From a virus, in IMG/VR virus record IMGVR_UViG_3300030099_006646, positions 1 to 64,000 of that record: a DNA stretch of 64,000 nucleotides. The stretch is one strand, 5' to 3'. The notes under the pieces are model-generated. The model ran no database searches, was not told where the DNA came from, and saw only the letters and a list, made by a program, of their open reading frames with translations. Position numbers and translations under genes: made by a program. Of this stretch, positions 2,549-25,998 are shown one piece after another (positions within the stretch are counted from its first letter, which is position 1; every line of letters starts with the position of its first letter).

Positions 2549-2565
2549 TTTTACAAGGAATATCC

Positions 2566-5950: not shown

Positions 5951-7210
5951 TTGACTGAAAAAATGAAGATTATAACTATTTCCGATAGCCCGATGGCTCC
6001 ATCAGGTGTTGGAACACAAACAAACTATATGATACAAAGTTTATTAAAGACTGGTAAATATCAATTTATTTCTATAGCTGGAGCCATTAAACATACGAAT
6101 TACAATCCTATCAAAACAGAAGAGTGGGGAGACGACTGGGTTGTCCTTCCAGTAGATGGTTATGGAACTCAAGAGCAAATTAGATCTATGGTCCGAAATG
6201 AAAAACCAGATGCTCTTTGGTTCATGACTGATCCCCGATTTTTCGGGTGGTTGTGGGAAATAGAAGATGAAATAAGACCTCTTTGTCCTATGATTTATTA
6301 TCATGTGTGGGACAATTACCCATACCCAAGATACAATGAGCCTCTTTATTCTTCTACTGATGTGATTGCTACAATTTCAAAAGTGACAGACAATGTAGTT
6401 AGAAACGTCGCTCCTGAAGTAGAGTGTATTCACATTCCTCATGCAGTGCCTGATGAAATTTTTATGCCCTTGGAAGAAGATGTTATTAATGCCTTGCGAA
6501 AAGATAATCTTGGTGATGAGAAAGATAAATTTATTGTTTTTTGGAACAATCGCAATGCTAGAAGAAAACAATCTGGTACTTTGATTTATTGGTGGAAGAA
6601 GTTCTTGGACAAAGTTGGATATGATAAAGCGAAACTTATCATGCATACAGATGTTCATGATCCATATGGTCAGAATCTACAATCTATTATTGAATCTTTA
6701 GGCTTGACCAATGGCGAAGTTGTATTTTCACAAAACAAAATTGGATTGCAAGACATGGCATCTTTTTATAATATGGCAGATTTGACTGTCAACATTGCCG
6801 ACGCCGAAGGATTTGGACTTGGAACACTTGAATCTCTTTCATGTGGAACGCCCATTATTGTTACAATGACAGGAGGTCTTCAAGAACAAGTTACAGATGG
6901 AGAGAACTGGTTTGGCGTTGGGATTGAACCTTCTTCTAAAGCTGTTATTGGTTCTCAAGAAATACCATATATCTATGAAGATAGAATCAATGAGGATGAT
7001 TTTGTAAACGCACTTGAGAAAATTTATAATATGACTCCAACAGAACGTAAAGAGCTAGGTGCAAAAGGCAGACAACACGTATTAAATAACTACAGCTTTG
7101 AACTTTACGGTCAACGTTGGGATGATCTTTTTCAGAAGGTCCAAAAGGACTATGGTTCCTGGGATACAAGAAAAAACTATAAAAACTGGCACTTGAAGGA
7201 GGTCAAATAA
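5951..7210 (+). CDS. Glycosyltransferase, GT4-like (GT-B fold)
   Basis: A 419-residue GT-B glycosyltransferase. The C-terminal nucleotide-sugar domain has the EX7E signature Glu286-Glu294 (AEGFGLGTLES) followed by CGTPIIVTMTGG, typical of family GT4. The N-terminal half opens with a Gly-rich acceptor loop (SDSPMAPSGVGTQTNYM). It probably transfers a hexose or deoxy-sugar onto a growing glycan in the cytoplasm. The start is TTG, chosen on Shine-Dalgarno spacing. It opens the sugar island and its stop overlaps the next start by one base. The next gene is another GT-B enzyme, so the pair may have duplicated. Donor and acceptor are unknown. Confidence 0.85.
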   Translation: MTEKMKIITISDSPMAPSGVGTQTNYMIQSLLKTGKYQFISIAGAIKHTNYNPIKTEEWGDDWVVLPVDGYGTQEQIRSMVRNEKPDALWFMTDPRFFGWLWEIEDEIRPLCPMIYYHVWDNYPYPRYNEPLYSSTDVIATISKVTDNVVRNVAPEVECIHIPHAVPDEIFMPLEEDVINALRKDNLGDEKDKFIVFWNNRNARRKQSGTLIYWWKKFLDKVGYDKAKLIMHTDVHDPYGQNLQSIIESLGLTNGEVVFSQNKIGLQDMASFYNMADLTVNIADAEGFGLGTLESLSCGTPIIVTMTGGLQEQVTDGENWFGVGIEPSSKAVIGSQEIPYIYEDRINEDDFVNALEKIYNMTPTERKELGAKGRQHVLNNYSFELYGQRWDDLFQKVQKDYGSWDTRKNYKNWHLKEVK

Positions 7211-8457
7211 TGAGAAAGAAGATTATTGTTACAGGTCCAGCTTTGTCTCAATCAGGCTACGGCGAACATACTAGATTTTTACTTAGAGCTTTAAAGAGCA
7301 GAGAGGATGTTTTTGATATCTACCTTCACAATGTAAATTGGGGTAAAACAAACTGGCTTTTTCATGACGATGACGAACGTCGATGGTTTGATTTTATTCT
7401 TCAAAAGACTGTTTTTCATACTCAAAAAGGTGGCAAATTTGATATTTCTGCTCAAGTAACAATTCCGAATGAATGGAAACCTCTAGCTCCAATCAATATC
7501 GGAGTTACTGCTGGTATTGAGACGACAAAGGTATCCCCTCAATGGATTGAAAAGTCATGGTTAGTAAATAAAATTATTACTATATCTGAACACTCAAAGC
7601 AGGTGTATGAAAGCACTTCATATCAAGCGTCGAACAATCAAACAGGAGAACAATTTATTGCTTCTTGCAAAGCACCTATCGACATTGTGCATTATCCCGT
7701 CAAGCAACCTGAATTACTTGATTTAGATATTGATTTTGAATATGATTTCAATTTTTTGACTGTAGCACAATGGGGTCCAAGAAAAAATCTTGACAATACT
7801 GTTAAATGGTTTTTGGATGAGTTTAAGAATAAAGAAGTTGGATTGATTATTAAGACAAGCGTCGCAAAGAATTGTCTTCTTGACAGAAGAATGACATTTA
7901 ATAATCTTAGGCGATTAATCGATAATGATGAAAATAGAAAATGCAAAGTCTATCTTTTACATGGATATATGTCAGATCAAGAAATCAACTCACTTTACAA
8001 TCATTCAAAAGTGAAGTGTCTTTTAAGTGCCACTCATGGCGAAGGCTTTGGTCTTCCTATCTTTGAAGCTGCTTATAATGGCTTGCCAATCATTGCGCCA
8101 TCTTGGTCTGGGCATGTGGATTTTCTTTATATGCCGAAGAAAGACAAGAACGGCAAGATTAAAAACAAGGCAATGTTCTCAAAAGTAGATTATAACTTGT
8201 CTCCTATTCCAGAACCAGTAGTTTGGGATGGGGTTCTTCAAGCAGACTCTATGTGGTGTGAACCTAAAGAAGCTTCCTTTAAACTTAAGATGAAAGACAT
8301 GGTTGATAACTGGAAGAGGCATAGCAAAAGAGCAAAAGATCTTCAAGCTTATGTTTTGGAAAACTTTAATGAAGAAAAACAGTACAAGGCGTTCACAGAT
8401 AGTATTCTATCTCTAATCGAATCACCCCAAGAAGATGAGCTTGTTGAGTTTGATTAA
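7210..8457 (+). CDS. Glycosyltransferase, GT4-like (GT-B fold)
   Basis: A 415-residue GT-B glycosyltransferase whose N-terminus (GPALSQSGYGEHTRFLLRAL) parallels the preceding enzyme. The EX7E motif is Glu278-Glu286 (GEGFGLPIFEAAYNGLPII), followed by APSWSGHVDFL. There is a strong GGAGG ribosome site, and TAATG coupling to the upstream gene. The region at about residues 310-350 (PKKDKNGKIKNKAMFSK) is an extra charged loop. It likely adds the next sugar in the same glycan. The sugar specificity cannot be read. Confidence 0.85.
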   Translation: MRKKIIVTGPALSQSGYGEHTRFLLRALKSREDVFDIYLHNVNWGKTNWLFHDDDERRWFDFILQKTVFHTQKGGKFDISAQVTIPNEWKPLAPINIGVTAGIETTKVSPQWIEKSWLVNKIITISEHSKQVYESTSYQASNNQTGEQFIASCKAPIDIVHYPVKQPELLDLDIDFEYDFNFLTVAQWGPRKNLDNTVKWFLDEFKNKEVGLIIKTSVAKNCLLDRRMTFNNLRRLIDNDENRKCKVYLLHGYMSDQEINSLYNHSKVKCLLSATHGEGFGLPIFEAAYNGLPIIAPSWSGHVDFLYMPKKDKNGKIKNKAMFSKVDYNLSPIPEPVVWDGVLQADSMWCEPKEASFKLKMKDMVDNWKRHSKRAKDLQAYVLENFNEEKQYKAFTDSILSLIESPQEDELVEFD

Positions 8458-8465
8458 GGAGACTT

Positions 8466-10076
8466 ATGAATATAGTTTACATCTCTGACTTTTTTGTGGA
8501 ACAAGTAGCCGGTGGAGGAGAACTCGTTGACGATTGTCTAATGAAGCATCTTTCTTCACGCGGCTTTTCCATTTTAAAGGTCAATTCACAAAATACAACA
8601 CAAGATTTTTTAGAAAAAAATAAAGATTCGTTCTTTATTGTCTCTAACTTCGTTGGATTAAGTCAACAAAGCAAAGATTTTCTTCAAAATTGCCGCTACA
8701 TTATCTACGAACACGATCACAAGTACATAATAGAGCGAAATCCTTCGCATTATCCAGACTTTGTTGTGCCTCCAAGCCGATTATGCAACCTTTCTTTCTA
8801 CAGAAATGCTCAAGCAGTGGTTTGTCAGTCAAAACTACACGCAGAAGTCTTACGAAAGAACATAAAATCTAACAATATTGTCTCTGCTGGTTGTACTTTA
8901 TGGTCAAAAGAGCATCTAGAGGTCTTAAGAAAGCATCTTAATACTCCAAAAACCGACAAAGCCGCTGTCTTAGACTCAACTAACCAAGTAAAAGGCACAT
9001 TCCAGGCTATTGAGCATTGCAAACGCAAGAATATTGACTATGAACTTATTAAATCACCTGATTATGACGAGTTTATTGGTCAACTTGCTTCAAAAAACTC
9101 ATTAGTTTTCTTTTCACAGGTATTAGAGAGTTTTTGTAGGCTCGTCGTAGAAGCCCGTATTCTCGATTGTAAGCTCATTACGAACAAAATGAATGGTTGT
9201 ACCTCGGAAGATTGGTTTAAAGCCTCTAAGGGGGCAAAACTCCTTGAATACGTGGAAAATAAACAAGAAGAAGTGGTTGATCTGTTCGTTTCACTTGTAA
9301 AAGGTGAGAAAAACACCGAAGTTATGCAAGAAACTGCTGATATTACAGTGATTTTGAACTCTTACAGGCGTCCATATAACCTAAAAATGCAAATAGAGGC
9401 TCTAAAAGCCCAAACAATCAAGCCAAAAGAGATTTGGTTGTGGGTAAATGCCCATGAAGACAATAAAGATTACGATTATTCCGACTTAGGGCTTGATAAA
9501 ATCTTTAATAACGACTTTAACTGGAAATTCTACGGTAGATTTGCCGGAGCACTGCTTTCAGACACCAAATACGTCGCTATTTTTGATGATGATACCATTC
9601 CAGGCACAAAATGGTTCGAAAACTGCTTAAATACGATGAAAACACACGAAGGTATCCTTGGTTCGGCTGGAATCTTGCTAAATGACAAAATTTATGTAAA
9701 ACACGACCGTTGTGGTTGGCCAACAAGGAATGAAGAGGCTATAGAGGTAGATTTAGTGGGTCATGCGTGGTTTTTTAAGCGAGATTGGCTACAATACCTC
9801 TGGAAAGAGAAGCCACCGACCTGGGATAACGCAGAAGACATACAATTTGCCTATTCTGCCCAAAAATACGGTAATATTAAGACATATTGCCCTCCACACC
9901 CTAAAAATGACATGGAAATGCACGGATCTATCATGGGAAATGAACTTGGCATCGATAATAAGGCAACTTCGACCAATTCTGCCGTTTCGCACCAACAATT
10001 CTTCTCTGAAAGGGACTTTTGTGTGCAATATGCCCTAAAAAATGGGTGGAAAACAGTACGAGGAGTCACGTTATGA
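8466..10076 (+). CDS. Two-domain glycosyltransferase: GT-B-like N-terminus plus GT2-like (GT-A) C-terminus
   Basis: A 536-residue fusion. Residues 1-290 resemble a shortened GT-B enzyme: YISDFFVEQVAGGGELVDD opening, and a late segment SQVLESFCRLVVEARILDCKL that recalls the GT4 donor site. From about residue 293 a GT-A domain begins (ITVILNSYRRPYNLKMQIEAL) with the metal-binding run Asp374-Asp375-Asp376 (IFDDDTIPG) and a later W..AEDIQF acceptor segment. The enzyme could add two sugars in series. A strong AAGGAG site precedes the ATG. The stop overlaps the epimerase start (ATGA). The N-terminal half lacks a clear EX7E motif and may be non-catalytic. Confidence 0.75.
   Translation: MNIVYISDFFVEQVAGGGELVDDCLMKHLSSRGFSILKVNSQNTTQDFLEKNKDSFFIVSNFVGLSQQSKDFLQNCRYIIYEHDHKYIIERNPSHYPDFVVPPSRLCNLSFYRNAQAVVCQSKLHAEVLRKNIKSNNIVSAGCTLWSKEHLEVLRKHLNTPKTDKAAVLDSTNQVKGTFQAIEHCKRKNIDYELIKSPDYDEFIGQLASKNSLVFFSQVLESFCRLVVEARILDCKLITNKMNGCTSEDWFKASKGAKLLEYVENKQEEVVDLFVSLVKGEKNTEVMQETADITVILNSYRRPYNLKMQIEALKAQTIKPKEIWLWVNAHEDNKDYDYSDLGLDKIFNNDFNWKFYGRFAGALLSDTKYVAIFDDDTIPGTKWFENCLNTMKTHEGILGSAGILLNDKIYVKHDRCGWPTRNEEAIEVDLVGHAWFFKRDWLQYLWKEKPPTWDNAEDIQFAYSAQKYGNIKTYCPPHPKNDMEMHGSIMGNELGIDNKATSTNSAVSHQQFFSERDFCVQYALKNGWKTVRGVTL
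10061..10065 (+). promoter_or_regulatory. Ribosome binding site fixing the epimerase start
   Basis: AGGAG lies 7 bases before ATG 10073 and rules against the longer start at 10019. Confidence 0.55.
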
Positions 10077-11080
10077 TGCTAATTTGCTTTGGAACACGCC
10101 CTGAATACATCAAAATTAAGCCTATTTTGGAGGTTTTTAAGGGTAAAATACCCCATAAAATCCTGTTTACAGGGCAACATACAGACCTTTTAGAGCATAT
10201 AAAAGACAATGTTCACCGCTTATATATTAAAGATGGACCTAATAGATTAGATTCTATTGTCACTTCTACCTTGAATAACGAGGATATTTTTAAAAATGTA
10301 ACGTCTGTTATGGTACAAGGAGACACTACATCGGCTTTTGCTATTGCTTTGGCTGCTTTTCATCGTAAAATACCCGTATTACACCTTGAGGCAGGGCTTA
10401 GAACGTATAATTTAGACCATCCTTACCCTGAAGAGTTCAATAGACAGGCAATTGGGCGCATAGCGACCTATAATCTATGTCCTACATCTAAATGTATGGC
10501 AAACTTAGAGAAAGAACACACTCCAGGTAAAAGATTTATTGTAGGCAACACAGTTTTAGATAATCTTGTTGATTTAGAGCCTTCTTTTAGTAATAACGTG
10601 ATTATAACGCTTCATAGGAGAGAAAATCATCACTGGATTGATGAATGGTTTAAAAAAATAGATAAATTGGCTGAGAAACACAAAGATTTAAACTTTATAT
10701 TACCAATTCATCCAAATCCAGCCGTTTTAAAGCACAAACACTTATTAGAACACGTAAAAGTCATTGATCCAGTGCCATACGATGAATTTATTAAGATGCT
10801 GGCGGGATGTAAGTTCGCTATAACAGATAGCGGAGGATTGCAAGAGGAACTTTCCTTTTTTGGCAAGCTTTGTATCGTATGTCGTAAGAAAACAGAGAGA
10901 ACAGAAGGTGTAGGAACCTTTGCCTACCTTTGCATGGAACCAAACAACTTAGAAGAGCTGTTTAATAGAATAAACAGCAACTATAACTCTGTTAAAGGCA
11001 TACCTTCTCCATATGGCAACGGAAAATCAGCCGAAAAGATACTAAAACTCATAAAGGATGGTTATGTCACAGGGATTTAA
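10073..11080 (+). CDS. wecB: UDP-N-acetylglucosamine 2-epimerase
   Basis: A 335-residue non-hydrolysing UDP-GlcNAc 2-epimerase that supplies UDP-ManNAc. Family blocks are all present: GTRPEYIKIKP, TGQHTDLL, QGDTTSAF, HLEAGLRT then HPYPEEFNRQAIG, GNTVLDNL, LHRRENH, IHPNP, DSGGLQEE and ERTEGVGT. It is about 30-40 residues shorter than the usual 370, with trimming spread between motifs rather than a broken end. The ATG at 10073 is supported by AGGAG at 10061-10065; a longer frame from 10019 would overlap the previous gene by 58 bases. No ManNAc dehydrogenase is visible here, so UDP-ManNAc is either used directly or oxidised by the host. Confidence 0.9.
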   Translation: MMLICFGTRPEYIKIKPILEVFKGKIPHKILFTGQHTDLLEHIKDNVHRLYIKDGPNRLDSIVTSTLNNEDIFKNVTSVMVQGDTTSAFAIALAAFHRKIPVLHLEAGLRTYNLDHPYPEEFNRQAIGRIATYNLCPTSKCMANLEKEHTPGKRFIVGNTVLDNLVDLEPSFSNNVIITLHRRENHHWIDEWFKKIDKLAEKHKDLNFILPIHPNPAVLKHKHLLEHVKVIDPVPYDEFIKMLAGCKFAITDSGGLQEELSFFGKLCIVCRKKTERTEGVGTFAYLCMEPNNLEELFNRINSNYNSVKGIPSPYGNGKSAEKILKLIKDGYVTGI

Positions 11081-11846
11081 AGAAGATTTCTTCAATCTTC
11101 TCAATAAGTTAAAGAATAATGAGCATTTTGCCTTTACTCGTTTTTCAGACGGTGAAGTATTCGTCATGGAGAACAAACATTTGATTTTACAGGAGAAATT
11201 CTGTAAAGTAGGCGATTTAATCCATAACTTTGGTTATTCAGAGGATGATCACAAAGAATTTGACCCTGAAAAGCATCAGTTCGTCCGTGAAAAGCTTATG
11301 GACGCCTTTAACTTTAAGAAAGAGAACTATTTCGTTGGAGCAGGGTGTAATAACTGCACTTGCGAGATTAGAAACCAAATTCCTTGGCTAAAAGAGATGC
11401 GACCAGGCGATGAAGAACACTGGACTTCTCCAAACCTGCTCGTTAACTCAAACTATCCTCTTTTTATCACACAGTTTGTCCCAGAGTTTAAAAATCACAA
11501 GATTGTTATGATCTGTAGCGAGAAAGCCAAGTTTGATAAAGCTCCTTTTGATGTTGTAAAAGACTTTAGGGTTGGAAAGAACTGTATTGTCAACGATCAT
11601 CATCTTGAAGAAGAAATCAAGACCTGGATGAACGAGAACAATGTTGAGAACCATTTATTTTTATTCTCTGCGTCAAGTTTAAGTGAAATACTCATTCATA
11701 AATTATTCGAACACAATGATAAGAATACCTACATGGATATTGGGACTTGTCTGCATCCATATCTTGGATTAACAGTGGAAAGAGATTATCTTAGAGCATA
11801 TTGGAACAACAAGTTTCACCCTGACCTTTTTAAGGAATGCGGTTGA
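11064..11846 (+). CDS. Putative GT-D-type glycosyltransferase (DUF1792-like)
   Basis: A 260-residue protein carrying FTRFSDGE near residues 25-31, close to the F-x-R-[FW]-G-D-G-E block of DUF1792/GT-D glycosyltransferases, where the Asp-x-Glu pair binds metal. A later segment TYMDIGTCLHPYLG fits the second conserved block with its Asp. A cysteine cluster (GAGCNNCTCE, around residue 96) is unusual. ATG 11064 was chosen because AAAGG ends 6 bases before it; an earlier ATG at 11058 touches that site. It overlaps the epimerase by 17 bases. The fold family is moderately supported; the sugar is unknown. Confidence 0.55.
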   Translation: MSQGFKEDFFNLLNKLKNNEHFAFTRFSDGEVFVMENKHLILQEKFCKVGDLIHNFGYSEDDHKEFDPEKHQFVREKLMDAFNFKKENYFVGAGCNNCTCEIRNQIPWLKEMRPGDEEHWTSPNLLVNSNYPLFITQFVPEFKNHKIVMICSEKAKFDKAPFDVVKDFRVGKNCIVNDHHLEEEIKTWMNENNVENHLFLFSASSLSEILIHKLFEHNDKNTYMDIGTCLHPYLGLTVERDYLRAYWNNKFHPDLFKECG

Positions 11847-12229
11847 TGGATTTTGTAAGCAATAAAAAAGAATATTGGAAGTTTATCTTAGATTTAAGAA
11901 ATCATCCGAGTGTTAAAGTTGGCTTTATTCAACAAGAACATATTTCAGAGGAAAGTCATATAGAATACATGAAAGAACACAGTGATAAATATTTTGTATG
12001 CTTGATTGACGGTGAACCCGCTGGGTATGTAGGAGTTATTAACAAAGATATTCGTGTAGCAACTCATCCAAAATATCAAGGACGCGGAGTAGGTAAATTT
12101 ATGATTGACGAGATAATGAAAATATATCCTAGCTCTTGTGCAAAAATAAAGATGGAAAACGAAGCAAGCATAAAACTTTTTGAAAAATGTGGCTTTAAAA
12201 AGAAATATTACATCCTGGAGAAGCAATGA
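11846..12229 (+). CDS. GNAT-family N-acetyltransferase
   Basis: A 127-residue GNAT acetyltransferase. The acetyl-CoA loop is seen in HPKYQGRGVGKFMIDEI (Q-x-x-G-x-G), preceded by a beta strand VATHP. The ending ENEASIKLFEKCGFKKK is the usual motif B. The small size and the context suggest N-acetylation of an amino sugar, as PseH and similar enzymes do in glycan loci. The ATG shares its A with the previous stop, and AAGGA lies 9 bases before it; an ATG at 11837 touches that site. It is followed by an ATGA overlap with the next glycosyltransferase. Confidence 0.8.
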   Translation: MDFVSNKKEYWKFILDLRNHPSVKVGFIQQEHISEESHIEYMKEHSDKYFVCLIDGEPAGYVGVINKDIRVATHPKYQGRGVGKFMIDEIMKIYPSSCAKIKMENEASIKLFEKCGFKKKYYILEKQ

Positions 12230-13635
12230 TTTCAAACAATAAAAAACTTAAAGACTTAGAAAATATTGATGTAATATTCTTTAGCGCTTTTGACCACAAT
12301 GAGGGAAAAAATAATCATGGATTATTTCAAATGTTCGACTTCTTTAGAAGCAACTTGAAGATAAAGTCTGTGTTTGTCAACACGCTAGAAAGTCTATACA
12401 GGAATGATATCGATATTTTTAATATTAGCCATTTAGGAGAAAATTTACCATTAGCTCAACAGATAAACTACGATTTTATGGATTCAAGCTCAAGTAATCC
12501 GTACCTTTGGCTAAACCAGTGTGATAAAACAGAAGAAGGAAGAAAAGAATATACAGAACACGCAGCCCGTATTTTAATAAAAAACTTGCCGAATCACAAA
12601 TTTATAGCCATCGCTGATAAAGCAGATATTGACTTGCCAGTACTAGAACTGATCTTAAGACACTTTAAATCAAAGGTCATTATTTTATCTGCTGTTAATA
12701 ATACATGGACCGGATATTGTGCATACCCGGATGAATACAATTGTGACAAGTTTAAAACTAAAGAGGGTTGCCGATTACCATGCCCTGCAATTTCTAGAAG
12801 AAAAGGTGGCGATGCAAGTTTTTTGTCTTCGAACTATAATGCCACAAAGGATTTTGTAGAAAGAAACAAGGAATCAGTTGTTTTGAATGTTGGTAACAAG
12901 TTTTCTTTCCAAGAAGCAAGTGAGAGTTTTATATTCAAGGATATCGAAAAAGTTTTAATACCATTAAAAAATGTTTTTTCTCACGATGATTTTGAAAAAT
13001 TATGGCTTGCTAAGAAAGATCAAAGGGAGAACTTACTTAATAATCTTAAGCAACAATCTTCTTTTAACGTGCAAAAAACAAAGTTTATTATCATGTGGTC
13101 AGCGCATGACATAGCTATAAAAAGAAAAGGTATGGATTATTTTATAACTTCTTTAAGAATACTGAAATATCTGATGAAGGTGGATAGGTTTGATGAGATG
13201 TTAGTCGTTATATCTGCACAAATTGGTGATCACGTCCTTGCTAATGAATTAAAAAAACTTAACATACCAGTAGTTTTTACTGGACATATAGATAAAAATA
13301 CTTATAATTCTATCTTAGCTGCAAGTGATGTGTATTGTTCGACTACTCTTAGCGATGCAGGACCTAGAACAACATACGAAGCTGCCGCCCTGGCTACTCC
13401 TGTAATTTCTTTTGATAAATGCAATGCTGCTGATTTTGTAAGTAATGAAAACGGAGCTTTAGTTGAAACTTATGACGTGAAAAGCTTTGCAGAGCAAATG
13501 TACAGATTCGCTAACCACAACAAAGAAGAAAAAAAGTTAACTTCACTCAATATGTATAAGACTTACGAGAACCTGATGGATACTAATAAACTTGTAGAAA
13601 AGTGGGAGGATTTCTTTAAAAAACATGGAGTATGA
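12226..13635 (+). CDS. Glycosyltransferase, GT4-like, with cysteine cluster
   Basis: A 469-residue GT-B enzyme. The C-terminal domain has DAGPRTTYEAAALATPVISF, in which Glu385 is the second Glu of EX7E and Asp377 takes the first position. The middle (about residues 163-186) holds a cysteine-rich stretch (YCAYPDEYNC ... GCRLPCP) like that of WcaC-type colanic-acid transferases, where HPxxxxGxC...C...CP motifs occur. MWSAHDIAIKRKGMDYF opens the donor domain. It likely extends the island's glycan. It overlaps the dioxygenase start by 11 bases. The AT-rich codon use is similar to the next several genes. Confidence 0.78.
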   Translation: MISNNKKLKDLENIDVIFFSAFDHNEGKNNHGLFQMFDFFRSNLKIKSVFVNTLESLYRNDIDIFNISHLGENLPLAQQINYDFMDSSSSNPYLWLNQCDKTEEGRKEYTEHAARILIKNLPNHKFIAIADKADIDLPVLELILRHFKSKVIILSAVNNTWTGYCAYPDEYNCDKFKTKEGCRLPCPAISRRKGGDASFLSSNYNATKDFVERNKESVVLNVGNKFSFQEASESFIFKDIEKVLIPLKNVFSHDDFEKLWLAKKDQRENLLNNLKQQSSFNVQKTKFIIMWSAHDIAIKRKGMDYFITSLRILKYLMKVDRFDEMLVVISAQIGDHVLANELKKLNIPVVFTGHIDKNTYNSILAASDVYCSTTLSDAGPRTTYEAAALATPVISFDKCNAADFVSNENGALVETYDVKSFAEQMYRFANHNKEEKKLTSLNMYKTYENLMDTNKLVEKWEDFFKKHGV

Positions 13636-15056: not shown

Positions 15057-15064
15057 AAGACGTT

Positions 15065-15706: not shown

Positions 15707-15708
15707 AA

Positions 15709-16374: not shown

Positions 16375-16375
16375 T

Positions 16376-17260: not shown

Positions 17261-17267
17261 GGAATTT

Positions 17268-18110: not shown

Positions 18111-18114
18111 AATA

Positions 18115-18738: not shown

Positions 18739-18744
18739 AATTTT

Positions 18745-19500: not shown

Positions 19501-19515
19501 TACAGGAGACATAAT

Positions 19516-20724
19516 ATGAAATGTAGAGGATGCGGATCAGAAAATATAAATCTAGTATTAGATCTTGGAGAACAACCTTGGTGTAATGATTTTCTTACAG
19601 AGGATAAGATTGGTAAAGAAGATAAATATCCTTTGCGCTTGTGCTATTGTGAAGACTGTGAACTTTTACAACTTGACCATACTGTTCCAAAAGAAACAAT
19701 GTTTGCAGATCATCAGTATCTCTCTGGAATGACCACTACTTTAGTAAATCATTTTTATGAAGTGGCTGAAGAAAATGTCAATCAGTTTGACATGCAGGCT
19801 GACGATCTTGTAGTTGACATTGGAGGAAATGACGGTAGCCAACTTTTACAATATAAAAAGGCTGGTGTTAGCAACGTAATCAATGTAGAGTCTGCTAAGA
19901 GAGTATCTAGAATCTCTAGAGATGCTGGTGTAAAGACCATTAATGAATTCTTCAATGAAGATTGCGCCCGCCGCCACTTGGGAGAAAAATCAGTTAAGCT
20001 TTACAATGCTTCTGGTGTATTCTTCCACTTAGAAGAGTTGCACAGTGTTATTAAGGGTATTAAATACTCCCTTAGAGATGATGGAGTTTTAATCGTTCAG
20101 TTTATGTATGCTGGTGCAATGATTGAAAATGGAAACTTTGATACAATATACCACGAGCATCTATGTTATTATACTATTAGAAGTTTGAACAACCTTCTTA
20201 AACCATATGGAATGGAGATCTTTGATGCCTATGCCTCTGACATCCATAGCGGCTCTATTATAGCCAAGATTTGTCACGATAATAGCGACTTAAATGCAAA
20301 GACCGATAGGTTTTTAGCTTTGTTAGAGAAAGATAAAGAGTACACAATCCAGAGAACTTTAGAGTTTGCAGAAACCGTAAAACAAAACAGAAATGCACTA
20401 AGAGATCTTTTGGTTGATATTAAAAACAATAATGAAAGCGTCTATGTTTATGGAGCCCCAGCCAAAGGAAATACTTTATTAAATTATTTTGACATCGACA
20501 AGACGCTTGTGGATAAAGCAGTAGAAATCAATCCAATGAAAATTGGTCATTACTTACCTCAATCGCACATACCTATTTGTCAAGAAACAAAGGATGATAT
20601 ACCAGATTATTATCTTCTTTTATCTCATAATTTTGCAAAAGAAATTATAAATAAGAATCAAGACATTATTTCCCAAGGTGTCAAGTTTATCATCCCTTTT
20701 CCTAAGCTTGAGGTGATTGGTTGA
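19516..20724 (+). CDS. NDP-sugar C-methyltransferase
   Basis: A 402-residue three-part methyltransferase of the type that C-methylates NDP-keto-sugars (Methyltransf_13/12/14 architecture, as in TylC3-like enzymes). The N-terminal zinc site has Cys3 and Cys6 (CRGCGS) and a second set Cys43/45/48 (LCYCEDC), around LDLGEQPWCNDF. The SAM domain has VDIGGNDGSQLL, and IYHEHLCYYTIRSLNNLL is the hallmark catalytic block. The C-terminal domain (VYVYGAPAKGNTLLNYF) is complete. It implies a branched-chain sugar. AGGAG lies upstream. The stop overlaps the next TTG start. Confidence 0.87.
   Translation: MKCRGCGSENINLVLDLGEQPWCNDFLTEDKIGKEDKYPLRLCYCEDCELLQLDHTVPKETMFADHQYLSGMTTTLVNHFYEVAEENVNQFDMQADDLVVDIGGNDGSQLLQYKKAGVSNVINVESAKRVSRISRDAGVKTINEFFNEDCARRHLGEKSVKLYNASGVFFHLEELHSVIKGIKYSLRDDGVLIVQFMYAGAMIENGNFDTIYHEHLCYYTIRSLNNLLKPYGMEIFDAYASDIHSGSIIAKICHDNSDLNAKTDRFLALLEKDKEYTIQRTLEFAETVKQNRNALRDLLVDIKNNNESVYVYGAPAKGNTLLNYFDIDKTLVDKAVEINPMKIGHYLPQSHIPICQETKDDIPDYYLLLSHNFAKEIINKNQDIISQGVKFIIPFPKLEVIG
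20710..20716 (+). promoter_or_regulatory. Ribosome binding site supporting a TTG start
   Basis: GAGGTGA, with GAGG 7 bases before TTG 20721. There is no nearby in-frame ATG, and the TTG places the Rossmann motif at residue 7. Confidence 0.5.
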
Positions 20725-21632
20725 AGGTTTTAGTAACAGGAGCAACGGGTTTTCTTGGCAGACACCTAACACCAAAGCTAGATACGCTCGGATGGGACAT
20801 ATATTTTTCAAACACTAGAACAGCAAATCTTAATGATATTAATAACTTAAATCTTTTTAAAGACATTAAATTTGATTATATCTTTCACTTAGCGGCAGTG
20901 ACTAAAGCAGGAGATTATTGTTTAAAACACCCAGGCGACCAGTGGCTTAAAAACCAGATTATTAATACTAATATTCTAACCTACTGGGTTCAAAATCAAC
21001 CTCAAGCTAAGATGATTTGCATGGGTACAAGTTGTTCATATACACCAGATATATTTATGACCGAAGACAACTATCTTATTGGTGAACCAGATAAAGGTCT
21101 TTACACCTACGCCATGACCAAGAGAATGCTTCTTGTCGGGCTTCAATCTATTGAGAAAGAATATGGTTTGAAGTGGCTTTATTTTGTTCCTTCTACTTTA
21201 TATGGACCTGACTTTGAGCTAGACGATAATCATTTCATTTTTGATTTTATAAGAAACTGCTATAACGCAAAACATAATAATGAAGACTTTGTAATCTGGG
21301 GAACAGGAGAACAGAGAAGAGAGCTGATTTATGTAGAAGACGCTGTTGACGCTATGATAAATCTTTTAAATGAAGAGAATGAAGTTTTTAATCTAGGATC
21401 AGGAGTAGATAATTCTATAAATGAATTTGCAGAAAAAGTTTGTAAATGCTACAAGTATGATTATAATTTAGTGAAGCGTGATTTAACCAAGTACGTTGGA
21501 GTAAAAGAAAAGAAAATTGACACTACTAAAGTTGTAAAACATTTAGGAGATAAAGTTTTCTTAAAAACTTCCCTTGACAAAGGGCTTCAAAAAAGTGTAG
21601 AGTACTTTATAAAAGCAATGGAGACAAAATGA
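20721..21632 (+). CDS. GDP-L-fucose-synthase-like epimerase/reductase (extended SDR)
   Basis: A 303-residue NAD(P)-dependent SDR. GATGFLG (7-13) binds the cofactor, and Tyr130-x3-Lys134 is the SDR pair. The block MGTSCSYTPD keeps Cys105 and DDNHFIFDFIR keeps His171, matching the Cys/His acid-base pair that GDP-fucose synthase uses for epimerisation; Thr103 stands at the usual Ser. WGTGEQRRELIYVEDAVDA is the family's substrate-loop block. It should epimerise and reduce a GDP-4-keto-6-deoxy-sugar, possibly a heptose rather than mannose. No GDP-mannose 4,6-dehydratase is obvious in the window. It overlaps both neighbouring genes by 4 bases. Confidence 0.8.
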   Translation: MKVLVTGATGFLGRHLTPKLDTLGWDIYFSNTRTANLNDINNLNLFKDIKFDYIFHLAAVTKAGDYCLKHPGDQWLKNQIINTNILTYWVQNQPQAKMICMGTSCSYTPDIFMTEDNYLIGEPDKGLYTYAMTKRMLLVGLQSIEKEYGLKWLYFVPSTLYGPDFELDDNHFIFDFIRNCYNAKHNNEDFVIWGTGEQRRELIYVEDAVDAMINLLNEENEVFNLGSGVDNSINEFAEKVCKCYKYDYNLVKRDLTKYVGVKEKKIDTTKVVKHLGDKVFLKTSLDKGLQKSVEYFIKAMETK

Positions 21633-22030
21633 CTGATAGAAAATACTTACCAACCTTATCAGAGCTAATCGACCGCTTGTCGATCGTCCAGCTCAAAGAG
21701 GTGTTTATACCAGAACATAAAGAAGAATATTCACAGGAAATAAAAGATATTGTTCATGACATACAACTTTGTTTGAACGAAGGGAGTGAGATTACTGCTG
21801 AGACAATCCGAGCAATTGTTGTCTTGTCGCAAATGAACTTACATATTTGGCATAACGAATCTAACTATCGAAAAGGCATCAAGGATGGAAACAATCTTGA
21901 GCTTACTCACGGCATCAACGGAATTAGAAACACTGCTAAAAACAAGATTCAAGAGATTGTCGGAGGCAGAAAAGACTATAAGATTGACTGTCTAGCTGCT
22001 GAATTTAAAGACTGGGAAGTTAGTTGGTAA
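21629..22030 (+). CDS. Hypothetical protein of the sugar island
   Basis: A 133-residue, all-helical soluble protein starting MTDRKYLPTLSELIDRLSIVQ. The second half, with NLHIWHNESNYR, ends IRNTAKNKIQEIVGG and then KIDCLAAEF. The W-H-N-E and R-N pattern weakly recalls DUF4254 proteins found near LPS heptose genes, but I cannot confirm this. It starts by ATGA overlap with the SDR gene, and its stop shares a base with the heptose-kinase-like start, so it is translated with both. A helper role in heptose-type sugar synthesis is the simplest guess. Confidence 0.6.
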   Translation: MTDRKYLPTLSELIDRLSIVQLKEVFIPEHKEEYSQEIKDIVHDIQLCLNEGSEITAETIRAIVVLSQMNLHIWHNESNYRKGIKDGNNLELTHGINGIRNTAKNKIQEIVGGRKDYKIDCLAAEFKDWEVSW

Positions 22031-22773
22031 TGAAGGTGTTGATTGTAGGTGATGCATGTGAAGATGTGTATATCTATGGAGATTGCAATCGCCTTGCCCC
22101 TGAAGCTCCTGTGCCGGTCTTTGTTCCGCAAACTAATACATCTAATGGTGGCATGGCTTTGAACGTCTTTGCTAACCTTAAATCTCTTGGGTATGACTGC
22201 GATATACTTCACAATACTGAAGAGATTACAAAAACTAGATATGTTGATAAAAAAACTAATCATATTTTTTTACGTGTAGATACTGATGACAAAGAGCTTA
22301 ATCGCATCCAAGACGACAATCTTAATAAAGATTTTCTCAATCAGTATGATGCTATTGTTATATCAGATTATAACAAAGGTTTTCTTTCGGAAGAGGATAT
22401 AGAAAAAATTTGTTACAACCATCCTTTAACATTCATGGATACAAAAAAGAATCTTGGACGTTGGTCTAAAGATTGCACTTGGATTAAAATAAACGAAGAA
22501 GAATATCAAAAAACCTTTAATGAAATCAAACATTTAACTCATATTTTTGATGAGAAACTTATTGTCACTTTGAGTGAAAAAGGTTGTCGGTATAAGGGAG
22601 AAATATTCCCAGTAGACAAGGTAGAAATTAAAGATCTTAGTGGAGCAGGTGACACTTTTCTCGCAGGTCTTGTATGCAACTACTTAAACACTAATGACAT
22701 TAAGAAGGCGATAACTTTCGCCAATGAATGCGCTACCAAAGTAGTGCAAAGGAGAGGAGTAAATGTCGTTTAA
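22030..22773 (+). CDS. HldA-type (RfaE domain 1) PfkB-family sugar kinase
   Basis: A 247-residue PfkB kinase resembling the N-terminal domain of HldE/RfaE, which phosphorylates heptose-7-phosphate at C1. Evidence is VLIVGDACEDVYIYGDCNRLAPEAPVPVF at the start, NGGMALNVFANL, and the ATP/anion-hole block DLSGAGDTFLAGL with catalytic Asp208. The domain is about 70 residues shorter than usual. The ATG at 22030 overlaps the previous stop; an upstream TTG adds two residues. The matching nucleotidyltransferase domain is encoded separately at 23987, so the usual fused HldE is split. The exact sugar is not certain. Confidence 0.82.
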   Translation: MKVLIVGDACEDVYIYGDCNRLAPEAPVPVFVPQTNTSNGGMALNVFANLKSLGYDCDILHNTEEITKTRYVDKKTNHIFLRVDTDDKELNRIQDDNLNKDFLNQYDAIVISDYNKGFLSEEDIEKICYNHPLTFMDTKKNLGRWSKDCTWIKINEEEYQKTFNEIKHLTHIFDEKLIVTLSEKGCRYKGEIFPVDKVEIKDLSGAGDTFLAGLVCNYLNTNDIKKAITFANECATKVVQRRGVNVV

Positions 22774-23053
22774 AGAATATTATGAACACTATCTAACACT
22801 ACATCAAAACAAATGGAATCGAAGGTTGCACGTCCTTGGAAACACCGCTACCACTACATTCGTAACTCTTTGCGTTTTACATTCGCTTTGGTTTATGCTA
22901 TTATTAACGCCATTCATAGTTTATCCTTTTGCTTGGAGCGGGCACTTCTTCTTTGAGAAAAACAAGCCTGCTGCTTTTTCTAATCCTTTATGGGCTAAAG
23001 CAAGCGACTGGGTAATGCTAAAAGATATTCTAACAGGAAAAATAAGGTGGTAA
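22763..23053 (+). CDS. DUF962 / Mpo1-like membrane protein
   Basis: A 96-residue protein of the DUF962 family. It has an N-terminal HYLTLHQNKWNRRLHVLG block (His9, His14, His23), two hydrophobic segments around residues 28-57, and FAWSGHFFFEKNKPAAF, the family signature with further His. Yeast Mpo1 uses such histidines for iron-dependent alpha-oxidation of 2-hydroxy fatty acids. The phage role is unknown. AAAGGAGAGG precedes the ATG, and the gene overlaps the kinase by 11 bases. It sits inside a heptose module, so it could act on a lipid-linked glycan or lipid carrier. Confidence 0.78.
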   Translation: MSFKEYYEHYLTLHQNKWNRRLHVLGNTATTTFVTLCVLHSLWFMLLLTPFIVYPFAWSGHFFFEKNKPAAFSNPLWAKASDWVMLKDILTGKIRW

Positions 23054-23056
23054 CAA

Positions 23057-23986
23057 ATGGCTAATGTATTAATCACAGGCGGAGCAGGTTATATTGGAAG
23101 CGAGTTGGTTCAATTCCTATTGCCTGATCATAAAGTTACAGTTTTAGATAATCTTATGTATGACAGAGATTCTCTTTTAAGATACGTTTCAAATGAAAAC
23201 TTTGATTTTATCAGAGGAGATGTAAGAGACACAAAACTTTTTAAAAGTCTTTTGGATAAATCAGATATTATTATCCCTTTAGCTGCTCTTGTTGGGTTTC
23301 CTTTATGTGATAGAAGCCCTAGAGAAGCAGTTGAAATTAATTTTCAAGCCAACAACTGGCTTTCTAAAGCTAAGTCCAAAGATCAGATTGTTATTTATCC
23401 TTGCACAAATTCTGGTTACGGCAAAAGCGTAGATGGTTCCGTAGTCACTGAAAAATCGCCACTTAATCCCGTATCTTTATACGGCAAAACCAAGGTGGAT
23501 GCAGAGACTATTTTTAAAGAAACTGAAAACTGCGCTACTTTTCGTTTAGCTACAGTATGTGGACCATCCAGCAGAATGAGGACTGATCTTCTCGTAAATA
23601 ATTTTGTCCTTCGAGCACTTCGAGATAGAGTTTTAGTTCTTTACGAATGTGAATTTATGAGAAACTATGTTCACATTCATGATGTCTGCCGCTCGTTTAA
23701 GTTTTTGATTGACAACTGGAATGATTGTAAAAACGATACTTACAACCTCGGACACGATGCTATGAATATGAACAAGCTTCAACTAGCAGAAAAGATTGGC
23801 GAACATACTCCGCTTGAAATTATCAAGGCAGAGTTCACAAAAGATCCAGATGTAAGAGATTATATTGTGAGCAGTCAAAAGATCTACGACAAAGGATTCG
23901 AATGCTTGTATGATCTCGACACAAGCATTCAGCAACTTTTGAAGGCTTATAAGATTATTGACTCTCCTTGGTACGCGAACTACTAG
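23057..23986 (+). CDS. NAD-dependent nucleotide-sugar epimerase/dehydratase (extended SDR)
   Basis: A 309-residue extended SDR. GGAGYIG (8-14) is the NAD motif, VLDN follows strand 2, PLAALVG is strand 4, CTNSGYGKS carries the catalytic Ser/Thr position, and Tyr142-x3-Lys146 (LYGKTK) completes the triad. RNYVHIHDVCR and TYNLGHD are the usual late blocks. It resembles UDP-glucose 4-epimerase-like proteins. Because it lies between the heptose kinase and the nucleotidyltransferase, it may act on the activated heptose. The next start codon directly follows its stop. Confidence 0.82.
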   Translation: MANVLITGGAGYIGSELVQFLLPDHKVTVLDNLMYDRDSLLRYVSNENFDFIRGDVRDTKLFKSLLDKSDIIIPLAALVGFPLCDRSPREAVEINFQANNWLSKAKSKDQIVIYPCTNSGYGKSVDGSVVTEKSPLNPVSLYGKTKVDAETIFKETENCATFRLATVCGPSSRMRTDLLVNNFVLRALRDRVLVLYECEFMRNYVHIHDVCRSFKFLIDNWNDCKNDTYNLGHDAMNMNKLQLAEKIGEHTPLEIIKAEFTKDPDVRDYIVSSQKIYDKGFECLYDLDTSIQQLLKAYKIIDSPWYANY

Positions 23987-24391
23987 ATGAAAGTTATTTG
24001 GACTAATGGCTGTTTCGATATTCTTCATCGAGGACACGTAGAACTTTTTAAGTTTTGTAAATCACAAGGCGACTATCTTGTTGTTGGTATAGATACAGAC
24101 AGCCGCGTAAAAGAAAGTAAAGGACCCAGCCGTCCTTTCAACAGTCAAGAAGATCGTAAGTTTTTTCTTGAGGCAATCAAGTACATTGATAAGGTTGTGT
24201 TATTTTCAACCGACAACGAGCTAGGACAAAGGCTCGTTGAAAACAATGTAGACACAATGATTGTTGGTTCTGATTGGGAAGGCAAGATGGTCGTAGGGCA
24301 GGAAAAAGTTAACAAAGTTTTATTTTTTGATAGAATAGGAACATACTCTACCACAAACATTCTGGAGGCAAACAATGACGTATGTAGTTGA
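23987..24391 (+). CDS. HldE C-terminal-type (RfaE domain 2) nucleotidyltransferase
   Basis: A 134-residue cytidylyltransferase-fold enzyme. The start TNGCFDILHRGHVELF contains the HxGH motif (His14, His17). SKGPSRPFNSQEDR, VGSDWEGKMVVGQE and TYSTTNIL are the blocks of the HldE/RfaE2 domain that joins ATP to heptose-1-phosphate. The length equals the isolated domain. It abuts the SDR stop with no spacer and overlaps the HAD gene by 17 bases. With the kinase at 22030 and the phosphatase at 24375 it completes most of an NDP-heptose route; sedoheptulose-7-phosphate isomerase (GmhA) is not seen here. Confidence 0.85.
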   Translation: MKVIWTNGCFDILHRGHVELFKFCKSQGDYLVVGIDTDSRVKESKGPSRPFNSQEDRKFFLEAIKYIDKVVLFSTDNELGQRLVENNVDTMIVGSDWEGKMVVGQEKVNKVLFFDRIGTYSTTNILEANNDVCS

Positions 24392-24704
24392 CATTGATGG
24401 AACAATTTGTGAAAAGGTCTCTGGTAACGACTACACACAAGCACAGCCACTACACAATCGTATAAAGGTTATTAACCAGCTTTACGATGATGGTTGCGAG
24501 ATTATTTATTTTACTGCGAGAGGAATGGGTCGTCACAACAATGATGCTGAAAAAGCCATTGCTCAGTTTTATGACTTAACCGAAAAACAACTTGCCTCTT
24601 GGGGAGCTAAGTATCACAAGCTTATACTTGGTAAGCCTGCTGGAGATTTTTACATTGACGATAAAGGAATAAGTGCTCATGTCTACTTTGAATCAGGGTC
24701 TTGA
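24375..24704 (+). CDS. HAD-type phosphatase, capsule-biosynthesis-like
   Basis: A 109-residue minimal HAD hydrolase. VVDIDGTIC supplies Asp6 and Asp8, IYFTARGMG the motif II Thr, and GKPAGDFYIDDKG the Lys and metal-binding acid. It resembles small phosphatases found in capsule and O-antigen loci. In this context it may do the job of GmhB, removing the C7 phosphate of heptose bisphosphate between the kinase and nucleotidyltransferase steps. TGGAGG precedes the ATG. It overlaps the nucleotidyltransferase gene by 17 bases. Confidence 0.75.
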   Translation: MTYVVDIDGTICEKVSGNDYTQAQPLHNRIKVINQLYDDGCEIIYFTARGMGRHNNDAEKAIAQFYDLTEKQLASWGAKYHKLILGKPAGDFYIDDKGISAHVYFESGS

Positions 24705-24705
24705 A

Positions 24706-25047
24706 ATGAAGTTCGTCAAGAAGGGCTGGGGTTACGAGAAATGGATAGTAAACAAGTCCGAATACTGCGGAAAGCTTCTTTTCTTTATGAAAGGTAAAAG
24801 ATGCTCTTGGCATTACCACGAACTTAAAGACGAAGTTTTTTATTTACAATCAGGAAAGATGTTGGTCAAATTTTCTGACAAAGACAACATCGCCCTGGCT
24901 GAAGAACTTGTTTTGAATCCTGGAGATAACTTTCATGTATGGCGCGGACTCCGACATCAAATGATCGCCCTTAAAGATTCAGAGCTTTTTGAGTTTTCGA
25001 CTGAGCACTTTGACTCTGATTCACACAGGATTTTAAAAGGAGATTAA
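24706..25047 (+). CDS. Cupin, mannose-6-phosphate isomerase type II-like
   Basis: A 113-residue single cupin domain. It opens KFVKKGWGYEKWIVNKSEYCGK, like the isomerase domain of ManC/PMI-II proteins. The metal ligands are His36, His38 and Glu43 (SWHYHELKDEVF) with His84 (LRHQM). PMI-II converts fructose-6-P to mannose-6-P, which would feed the phosphomannomutase at 954; other sugar-isomerase or epimerase roles are possible. The ATG at 24706 begins the domain neatly; a longer frame from 24673 overlaps the HAD gene. The next gene starts immediately after its stop. Confidence 0.7.
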   Translation: MKFVKKGWGYEKWIVNKSEYCGKLLFFMKGKRCSWHYHELKDEVFYLQSGKMLVKFSDKDNIALAEELVLNPGDNFHVWRGLRHQMIALKDSELFEFSTEHFDSDSHRILKGD

Positions 25048-25998
25048 ATGAAACTTGTTGTTATTACTGGATGTCTAGGTTTAATTGGCTCATATGTCAC
25101 AAGAAAATGCCTCTCTAAGGGTTGGAAGGTCTATGGGATAGACAACCTTACCTATGCGGCAAACAAATCGTTTCTAGACGATTTTAGAAGGGATTCTAAC
25201 TTTACCTTTCTGGAAGAAGATATCGCTCAACTTAAATCTTTACCAGATTGTGATTATGTTATTAATATTGCTGCTGAATCTCACGTAGGTAATAGTATCA
25301 TTGATAGTAGCGATTTTATTGAAACAAACGTGAATGGAGTAAAAAACCTGCTAGACCTTATTCGCCGAAAACCAGACAACACTATGAAGCGCCCTGTTTT
25401 CTTTCATTTTAGCACTGATGAAGTCTACGGAGACATCGCAGAGGGCGAACACGTAGAGACAGACCCTCTTATCCCAAGTAACCCTTATTCAGCCTCTAAG
25501 GCATCATCAGATATGCTTATCTTGGCTTGGGCAAGGACTTACGGTGTAAAGTATGTTATTGTTCGTCCAACAAACAACTATGGTGAAGGACAATACCCAG
25601 AAAAACTTATTCCTTTATGTGTGAAACTCCTCCAGCGAGGAAAAAAGATCATGCTTCACGACGAAGGCGAACCAATCCGCAACTGGCTTCACGCAGAAGA
25701 TACAGCAGAAGCAGTTACAACTATTATAGAATCTGGCAAAGTAGATGAAATCTTTAACATTCCAGGCGATTTTGAACAAAAAAACTGGTTAACTGTTAAA
25801 AAAATCATTGAAGCGTACTATAATAGTGAGGTAAACTGGAAAGATTACGTGGACTTAAGCCACAAAAGACCTGGACAAGATGTTAGATATGCTCTTAACG
25901 GAGACAAACTAGAAGCACTTGGATGGAAACCTACAAAGGTTTTCGACGAAGAGATTGTAAAGCTTGTTCAGTTTTACAAAGAAAATTTCAAATGGTAA
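25048..25998 (+). CDS. RmlB-like NDP-glucose 4,6-dehydratase
   Basis: A 316-residue extended SDR close to dTDP-glucose 4,6-dehydratase. TGCLGLIGS is the NAD motif, IAAESHVGNSI follows strand 4, and the catalytic Thr123-Asp124-Glu125 (FSTDEVYG) and Tyr147-x3-Lys151 (NPYSASK) are intact. The block RPTNNYGEGQYPEKLIPL is diagnostic, then EPIRNWLHAEDTAEA. It would make a 4-keto-6-deoxy-sugar, the substrate type needed by the C-methyltransferase and the DegT-like enzyme upstream. RmlA is not visible, so the nucleotide donor is unknown. AAAGGAG precedes the ATG. This is the last gene of the sugar island. Confidence 0.85.
   Translation: MKLVVITGCLGLIGSYVTRKCLSKGWKVYGIDNLTYAANKSFLDDFRRDSNFTFLEEDIAQLKSLPDCDYVINIAAESHVGNSIIDSSDFIETNVNGVKNLLDLIRRKPDNTMKRPVFFHFSTDEVYGDIAEGEHVETDPLIPSNPYSASKASSDMLILAWARTYGVKYVIVRPTNNYGEGQYPEKLIPLCVKLLQRGKKIMLHDEGEPIRNWLHAEDTAEAVTTIIESGKVDEIFNIPGDFEQKNWLTVKKIIEAYYNSEVNWKDYVDLSHKRPGQDVRYALNGDKLEALGWKPTKVFDEEIVKLVQFYKENFKW

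What the first reader, a model, noticed from the sequence alone, without database searches (positions are those of the whole stretch)
5951..25998. 20-kb, 25-gene glycan biosynthesis island in a contractile-tail phage
From 5951 to 25998 nearly every gene fits the synthesis of one decorated glycan: epimerase, dehydratase, C-methyltransferase, DegT-like enzyme, acyltransferases, dioxygenase, O-methyltransferases and about five to six glycosyltransferases. Start/stop overlaps are nearly continuous, so the block behaves as one or a few operons. No flippase, polymerase, ligase or initiating phosphoglycosyltransferase is visible. That argues against a complete O-antigen system and for glycosylation of phage proteins, or for hijacking a host lipid-linked precursor. 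This is the best candidate for an undescribed system here.
Basis: partly seen in the sequence, partly recalled or inferred. Interest (0 to 1): 0.75.

Follow-up and report, generated by a model that had tools for sequence, protein, structure and literature searches.

The report
Swappable sugar-making gene block in phages
A marine tailed phage carries 25 adjacent genes for making and attaching unusual sugars, at a genome position where dozens of related uncultured phages carry different combinations of such genes, which suggests that these viruses build their own distinctive sugar coats, probably on virus proteins, although the target is not proven.

Summary
5951-25998 holds exactly 25 co-directional genes, almost all for nucleotide-sugar synthesis, decoration and transfer, inside a 158.6-kb phage contig. 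It is not a misassembly: the same flanks (PhoH and PD-(D/E)XK nuclease on the left, RmlB-like and late sigma factor on the right) recur in independent viral contigs.

It is not an undescribed kind. Marine cyanomyoviruses (P-SSM2, S-SM2, S-SSM7) carry 'LPS' clusters. Four genes here are homologues of that module (split HldE-like kinase and nucleotidyltransferase, HAD, cupin). Flavobacterium phage immuto has a smaller block at the same site.

What is new: the locus is polymorphic. A left GT/epimerase/acetyltransferase block is widely kept. The right half ranges from 1.8 to 13.4 kb and draws on 63 protein families in 30 loci; one 5.9-kb cassette here is a transferable unit. Core genes are under strong purifying selection (dN/dS 0.02-0.14), so they are not stuffer DNA. 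None of 1,977 ORFs in 88 phage loci looks like a flippase, polymerase or ligase. A 207-aa mini-DegT with intact PLP residues occurs in at least 588 viral contigs.

Best reading: cytosolic assembly of a variable, heptose-type or C-methylated deoxysugar glycan on phage proteins (about 0.5). Host-surface modification is the main rival (about 0.33).

The parts
2542..2549 (+). presumptive late promoter element CTATTTAT ahead of PhoH, head of the co-directional run that contains the island
   Evidence: motif 15 (+) vs 2 (-) in the contig, 13 of 15 intergenic although only 3.1% of the contig is intergenic, mostly just upstream of structural genes; inferred, not mapped
2566..3888 (+). PhoH-like/PIN protein, left flank
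   Evidence: Pfam PhoH E=2.6e-51; same flank in 36 of 80 related loci
5164..5940 (+). PD-(D/E)XK nuclease, conserved left boundary
   Evidence: PF12705; precedes GT genes also in immuto and Mel-JY01
5951..7210 (+). GT4 glycosyltransferase (GT4a)
   Evidence: PF00534 1.3e-14
7210..8457 (+). GT4 glycosyltransferase (GT4b)
   Evidence: PF00534 1.3e-9
8466..10076 (+). glycosyltransferase with a C-terminal GT2 domain
   Evidence: PF00535 1.8e-5; in 58 of 80 loci
10076..11080 (+). UDP-GlcNAc 2-epimerase (WecB-like)
   Evidence: TIGR00236 232 bits, above the 210 cut-off
11058..11846 (+). GT-D (DUF1792-like) glycosyltransferase, motif FxRFSDGE
   Evidence: AF2 model (pLDDT 69) to PDB 4pfx E=9e-7
11837..12229 (+). 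GNAT acetyltransferase
   Evidence: PF00583 1.3e-13
12226..18110 (+). transferable cassette: GT4, PhyH dioxygenase, WbqC, methyltransferase, NeuD-type acetyltransferase, GINT1-like, methyltransferase
   Evidence: no intact copy in L002-L007 (only isolated weak homologues); largely present as a block in L028 (66-90%), parts in L080 and L104
18115..18738 (+). mini-DegT, 207 aa, with PLP Lys114 and Asp90
   Evidence: A2 alignment; 79 of 80 homologues are 198-236 aa; K114 and D90 invariant in 81 of 81
18745..19500 (+). GT-A-fold glycosyltransferase, no sequence family
   Evidence: AF2 model (pLDDT 69) to many GT-A structures
19516..20724 (+). sugar C-methyltransferase (Methyltransf_13/14)
   Evidence: PF08484 4.7e-38; dN/dS 0.018-0.027
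20721..21632 (+). GDP-fucose-synthase-like SDR (EPI1)
   Evidence: NF047922 132 bits, below cut-off; PDB GDP-L-fucose synthase 1.6e-25
21629..22030 (+). 133-aa protein of unknown family, very conserved (77-95%)
   Evidence: no PHROG
22024..22773 (+). PfkB kinase, HldE domain-I-like, compact
   Evidence: best NCBIfam rfaE_dom_I 128 bits, below cut-off; PDB heptose-7-P kinase; P-SSM2/S-SM2 homologues 43-54%
22763..23053 (+). Mpo1-like 2-hydroxy-fatty-acid dioxygenase, the only TM protein of the island
   Evidence: PF06127 5e-30
23057..23986 (+). NAD-dependent epimerase/dehydratase (EPI2)
   Evidence: PF01370 6.5e-27
23987..24391 (+). nucleotidyltransferase, HldE domain-II-like
   Evidence: best NCBIfam rfaE_dom_II 104 bits, below cut-off
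24375..24704 (+). HAD phosphatase (EcbF/BcbF-like)
   Evidence: TIGR01689 5e-9, below cut-off; PHROG 1238
24673..25047 (+). cupin
   Evidence: PF07883 9e-8; 67-69% identical to P-SSM2/S-SM2 'cysteine dioxygenase'
25048..25998 (+). dTDP-glucose 4,6-dehydratase-like (RmlB), conserved right boundary
   Evidence: TIGR01181 300 bits, cut-off 365; PDB 2hun 7.5e-67, STDEVYGD and YSASK motifs retained
26736..27473 (+). late sigma factor (gp55-like), right flank
   Evidence: phrog_234; conserved neighbour in relatives

Best explanation
This is a polymorphic phage glycosylation locus. Phage enzymes take host NDP-sugars and a host sugar phosphate (probably sedoheptulose/heptose-7-P) and make rare activated sugars: UDP-ManNAc through WecB, an HldE-type activated heptose through PfkB, HAD and the nucleotidyltransferase, and a 4-keto/C-methylated/reduced deoxysugar through RmlB, cupin, C-MT and an Fcl-like SDR. 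Six soluble glycosyltransferases then assemble the glycan stepwise in the cytosol, most likely on phage proteins (tail or capsid) made in the same late phase. The right half and one internal cassette are exchanged as modules between phages, giving each lineage its own glycan, as in bacterial serotype loci but without export genes. Shown: gene content, conserved site, module exchange, purifying selection, absence of membrane machinery. Inferred: sugar identities, late expression, virion target.
For: Gene functions. Constant flanks with a swapped interior: 30 loci, right half 1.8-13.4 kb and 4-20 genes, 63 families among 350 proteins, co-occurrence counts in 80 loci. Core dN/dS 0.018-0.14 versus 0.07-0.10 for the flanking sigma factor. 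Zero ORFs with 4 or more TM segments among 1,977 in 88 phage loci, where the same scan finds 9 in E. coli rfbX and 6 in wbbH. No PF02397 in the contig. The locus lies co-directionally between PhoH, headed by a late-type promoter motif, and the gp55/tail genes; the early-type motif is not properly placed in it. Bacterial homologues of C-MT, EPI1 and EPI2 sit with HddA/HddC-like heptose genes. Precedent for soluble virus-encoded virion glycosylation: chloroviruses (PMC5408694) and Megavirinae clusters of 6-33 genes (PMC10117803).
Against: No virion glycan has been measured. The Mpo1-like membrane enzyme acts on 2-hydroxy fatty acids in its known relatives and hints at a lipid. No protein-glycosylation signature (acceptor motif or initiating protein GT) was identified. 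The late promoter is inferred, lies 3.4 kb upstream, and is found at PhoH in only 5 of 18 relatives. HldE-type proteins score below curated cut-offs, and GmhA is absent from the contig. The contig may be incomplete.
Confidence: 0.5

Rival explanations
1. The enzymes modify the host's LPS, capsule or glycolipid during infection, using the host's lipid carrier and flippase, for example to block superinfecting phages (the standing proposal for cyanophage LPS genes).
For: Homology to bacterial O-antigen/capsule enzymes. Shared module with cyanophage 'LPS' clusters, for which host-surface modification has been proposed (PMC9602691). Mpo1-like lipid enzyme conserved in the core. Lineage-specific variation fits receptor diversity.
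Against: No membrane GT, initiating transferase, flippase or polymerase in the contig, and no polytopic protein in 88 related loci. Co-linear with late tail genes.
Confidence: 0.33
2. The cluster is filler DNA for headful packaging with no selected function, a possibility raised for cyanophage LPS clusters (PMC3037559).
For: Variable size and content of the right half.
Against: Intact frames, dN/dS 0.018-0.14 in core genes, conserved active-site residues, and the same genes kept in many contigs.
Confidence: 0.03
3. The glycosyltransferases sugar-modify phage DNA bases, as in T-even phages.
For: Many GTs in a T4-related phage; WecB and epimerases could supply donors.
Against: No thymidylate-synthase-family (hydroxymethylase) gene in the contig. 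The large set of deoxysugar and acyl decorators is not known from DNA modification (own knowledge).
Confidence: 0.04
4. Bacterial DNA joined to a phage by misassembly.
For: Gene families look bacterial.
Against: Same flanks and gene order in many independent viral contigs; homologues in isolated phages.
Confidence: 0.01

Closest known systems
LPS gene clusters of T4-like marine cyanophages (P-SSM2, S-SM2, S-SSM7; T4-GC 304-308)
   Same: Split HldE-like nucleotidyltransferase and PfkB, HAD and cupin genes homologous at 41-69%; S-SM2 has about 25 glycan genes in 20 kb; one P-SSM2 cluster also lies near phoH (PMC3037559).
   Different: Different phage lineage (terminase 30-32% to cyanophages versus 44% to Immutovirus). 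Different site (PDDEXK/PhoH to gp55), different GT set, mini-DegT, C-methyltransferase.
Flavobacterium phage vB_FspM_immuto glycan block (NC_055915, 49-60 kb)
   Same: Same left boundary (PDDEXK, then GT4a, GT4b), mini-DegT 41%, related terminase, isolated phage.
   Different: Smaller block (about 11 kb), no HldE/C-MT module, different right context.
Megavirinae fibril-glycosylation clusters and chlorovirus capsid glycosylation
   Same: Virus-encoded NDP-sugar pathways plus mostly soluble cytosolic GTs, clade-specific gene sets (PMC10117803, PMC5408694). Functional analogy only.
   Different: Eukaryotic giant viruses; glycans chemically demonstrated there, not here; no homology of the locus tested.
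Bacterial O-antigen/capsule (Wzx/Wzy) loci
   Same: Conserved flanks with a variable centre; same enzyme classes.
   Different: No flippase, polymerase, ligase or initiating transferase; phage-borne.
DegT/DnrJ/EryC1/StrS sugar aminotransferases (e.g. perosamine synthetase 3bn1)
   Same: PLP lysine and aspartate, N-terminal and central motifs.
   Different: About 207 aa instead of about 370, with a central segment and the C-terminal domain missing.

Membership tests
Wzx/Wzy O-antigen or capsule locus | initiating phosphoglycosyltransferase | tested here: not met
   PF02397 absent from the contig while the control rings in 9 of 14 genomes
Wzx/Wzy O-antigen or capsule locus | polytopic flippase/polymerase/ligase or ABC permease | tested here: not met
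   0 of 1,977 ORFs in 88 loci with 4 or more TM; rfbX 9 and wbbH 6 in the control
Wzx/Wzy O-antigen or capsule locus | NDP-sugar enzymes plus GTs, conserved flanks, variable centre | tested here: met
Cyanomyovirus LPS module (T4-GC 304-307) | homologues of nucleotidyltransferase, PfkB, HAD and cupin in one cluster | tested here: met
   41-69% identity in P-SSM2 and S-SM2 loci
Cyanomyovirus LPS module (T4-GC 304-307) | cyanophage genome, cluster near hli03 and/or phoH | tested here: inconclusive
   phoH-proximal, but terminase nearest to Immutovirus; host unknown; psbA and hli not searched
Virus-encoded virion glycosylation (Megavirinae/chlorovirus type) | virus-encoded NDP-sugar enzymes and soluble GTs | tested here: met
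Virus-encoded virion glycosylation (Megavirinae/chlorovirus type) | glycan present on virion protein | not testable with these tools
   needs glycoproteomics
HldE-type ADP-heptose pathway | heptose-7-P kinase and heptose-1-P adenylyltransferase | tested here: inconclusive
   best NCBIfam models rfaE_dom_I/II but below cut-offs
HldE-type ADP-heptose pathway | GmhA isomerase encoded | tested here: not met
   SIS_2 PF13580 absent from the contig; could be supplied by the host
DNA base glycosylation | hydroxymethylase of the thymidylate-synthase family | tested here: not met
   PF00303 absent from the contig
DegT aminotransferase | PLP-lysine and PLP-aspartate | tested here: met
   K114 and D90 invariant in 81 of 81
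DegT aminotransferase | full-length fold of about 370 aa | tested here: not met
   198-236 aa in 79 of 80 homologues

The most novel reading that the evidence does not exclude
A widespread group of aquatic contractile-tail phages carries a serotype-like locus that glycosylates its own virion proteins entirely in the host cytosol, with module swapping giving each phage a distinct coat, and with a minimal 207-aa DegT enzyme as a recurrent component: a prokaryotic-virus counterpart of giant-virus glycosylation.
Probability: 0.42. Interest if true: 0.8.

Novelty: new variant of a known kind. Interest (0 to 1): 0.52.

Why it matters
A published comparison of cyanophages left open whether phage LPS-type clusters are functional or stuffer DNA (PMC3037559). 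Here the core genes of such a cluster are shown to be under strong purifying selection, with intact catalytic residues, at a fixed site in many phages. The total lack of export machinery turns the old 'LPS' label into a testable alternative: self-glycosylation of virions. The locus also defines a compact DegT family in at least 588 viral contigs that could reveal a minimal PLP sugar enzyme.

Tried and rejected
Megablast to phages found only a 33-nt match. The first genome-contig scan with a single C-MT found nothing; the alignment-based scan found two Verrucomicrobia MAGs. Misassembly rejected. DNA glycosylation considered, but no PF00303. A TATAAATA late promoter was tested first: 7 on +, none intergenic; the strand-biased motif proved to be CTATTTAT. 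A first count of the motif upstream of PhoH in relatives (8 of 33) was flawed by invalid start positions; recounted as 5 of 18. Sequence search of 11058 and 18745 against PDB was uninformative; fold search was not. Literature searches for phage virion glycosylation returned nothing usable in the held library; the 2005 P-SSM2 paper was not held. A phylum-wide cellular search for mini-DegT was not possible; in the one Verrucomicrobia genome reached, the DegT matches lie in 369- and 382-aa frames.
Full report
OBSERVATION. The window is the first 64 kb of a 158,608-bp IMG/VR virus contig. Between 5951 and 25998 there are exactly 25 co-directional ORFs with gaps of at most 15 nt. Pfam assigns most of them to nucleotide-sugar synthesis, decoration or transfer. 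Two ORFs without sequence families, 11058 and 18745, were modelled with AlphaFold2 (mean pLDDT about 69) and matched GT-D (PDB 4pfx, E=9e-7) and GT-A folds respectively. This gives six likely glycosyltransferases. NCBIfam passes its curated cut-off for WecB (10076-11080) and for the NeuD/PglB/VioB acetyltransferase (15709). RmlB-, HldE- and Fcl-like assignments are the best models but fall below cut-off.

NOT A MISASSEMBLY. Fourteen viral contigs carry the C-methyltransferase. Several of them carry most of the island in the same order between the PDDEXK/PhoH genes and the gp55-like late sigma factor. In those 80, GNAT is beside or near it in 66, the GT-D gene in 63, GT2 in 58, WecB in 49, GT4a/GT4b in 38-39, PhoH in 36 and PDDEXK in 35, despite many truncated contigs.

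MODULAR LOCUS. In 30 loci that reach from mini-DegT to gp55, the interval varies from 1.8 to 13.4 kb and 4 to 20 genes; its 350 proteins fall into 63 families, 18 of them in one locus only. The 5.9-kb stretch 12226-18110 (GT4, PhyH, WbqC, MT, NeuD-type, GINT1-like, MT) has no intact counterpart in L002-L007; only isolated weak homologues of single genes appear there. L004 has mini-DegT directly followed by the 18745 homologue. The cassette reappears largely intact in L028 at 66-90% identity, and in part in L080 and L104. The window itself lacks a gene of about 320 aa that lies between 18745 and the C-methyltransferase in L002-L004, L006, L007, L017 and L018. Synonymous divergence to L007 ranges from 0.24 to saturation between neighbouring genes, which points to recombination.

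SELECTION. Pairwise dN/dS of island core genes against L007/L002 is 0.018-0.14 where dS is not saturated, compared with 0.07-0.10 for the flanking sigma factor. This argues against the 'stuffer DNA' possibility that was left open for cyanophage LPS clusters (PMC3037559). Cassette genes could not be tested this way.

CHEMISTRY (inferred). PfkB 22024 and nucleotidyltransferase 23987 look like the two halves of HldE. With HAD 24375 and cupin 24673 they are homologues of the P-SSM2/S-SM2 module. In a Verrucomicrobia MAG the homologues of C-MT, EPI1 and EPI2 lie with HddA- and HddC-like genes, again pointing to activated heptose. RmlB-like 25048 keeps the STDEVYGD and YSASK motifs. RmlB, C-MT and an Fcl-like reductase are the usual kit for C-methylated deoxysugars (own knowledge). 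No NTP_transferase (PF00483) or SIS_2/GmhA is encoded in the contig, so starting nucleotide sugars and heptose phosphate would come from the host.

WHERE THE GLYCAN GOES. No PF02397 enzyme is in the contig. Kyte-Doolittle scanning finds no ORF with four or more TM segments among 1,977 in 88 related loci, while the same scan gives 9 for E. coli RfbX and 6 for WbbH. No thymidylate-synthase-family gene is present, which disfavours DNA glycosylation. A strand-biased motif CTATTTAT (15 + / 2 -, 13 of 15 intergenic) precedes structural genes and PhoH, while TTGA-N18/19-TTATAAT precedes replication genes (gene roles partly by eye). The island follows the PhoH copy of the former. This favours late expression, but the motif is found at PhoH in only 5 of 18 relatives with a readable start. 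I therefore rank cytosolic glycosylation of phage proteins first (0.5) and host-surface modification through host carriers second (0.33). The conserved Mpo1-like membrane dioxygenase is unexplained and is the best argument for a lipid target.

MINI-DEGT. The 18115 protein aligns to perosamine synthetase in two blocks, with a shortened middle and no C-terminal domain. It keeps the PLP lysine (K114) and aspartate (D90) in 81 of 81 sequences, and 79 of 80 homologues are 198-236 aa long. It also occurs in immuto. In the one bacterial genome reached, DegT matches lie in 369- and 382-aa frames.

COMPARISON. Closest known are cyanomyovirus LPS clusters (PMC3037559, PMC9602691) and the Immutovirus block. 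By analogy only, giant-virus systems with 6-33-gene glycan clusters work in the proposed way (PMC10117803, PMC5408694). The verdict is a new variant of a known kind.

CAVEATS. Contigs are uncultured assemblies, host unknown. G000 may be incomplete. Relatives were fetched through single genes, so frequencies are conditional on that gene. ORF calling was mechanical.

Noticed in passing
22763-23053: Mpo1-like (DUF962) membrane dioxygenase, a fatty-acid alpha-oxidation family, sits inside a sugar operon and is conserved in most loci that keep the HldE-type module; its role is unexplained.
   Followed up: partly
21629-22030: A 133-aa protein with no Pfam (above cut-off) or PHROG family is among the most conserved genes of the island (77-95%).
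   Followed up: no
genome positions 65745, 118220, 118590, 140523 (beyond the window): Four unrelated-looking proteins begin with the same K-I-[TS]-K..L..II.EE helix, possibly a targeting tag such as a capsid-targeting sequence.
   Followed up: no
genome 134874-136445, 141656-142654, 130229-131296, 119842-120690: By eye, GroEL-, adenylosuccinate-synthase-, IMP-dehydrogenase- and cysteine-synthase-like genes in the rest of the contig; immuto also carries groEL and Mel-JY01 guaB.
   Followed up: no
whole contig: Two promoter classes are readable: early TTGA-N18/19-TTATAAT and presumptive late CTATTTAT, the latter differing from the T4 TATAAATA consensus.
   Followed up: partly
L027:13050-14699: A close relative's right half carries a carbamoyltransferase-like gene (by eye), a class also found in the P-SSM2 cluster; L028 carries a NodZ-like gene (by eye).
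   Followed up: no
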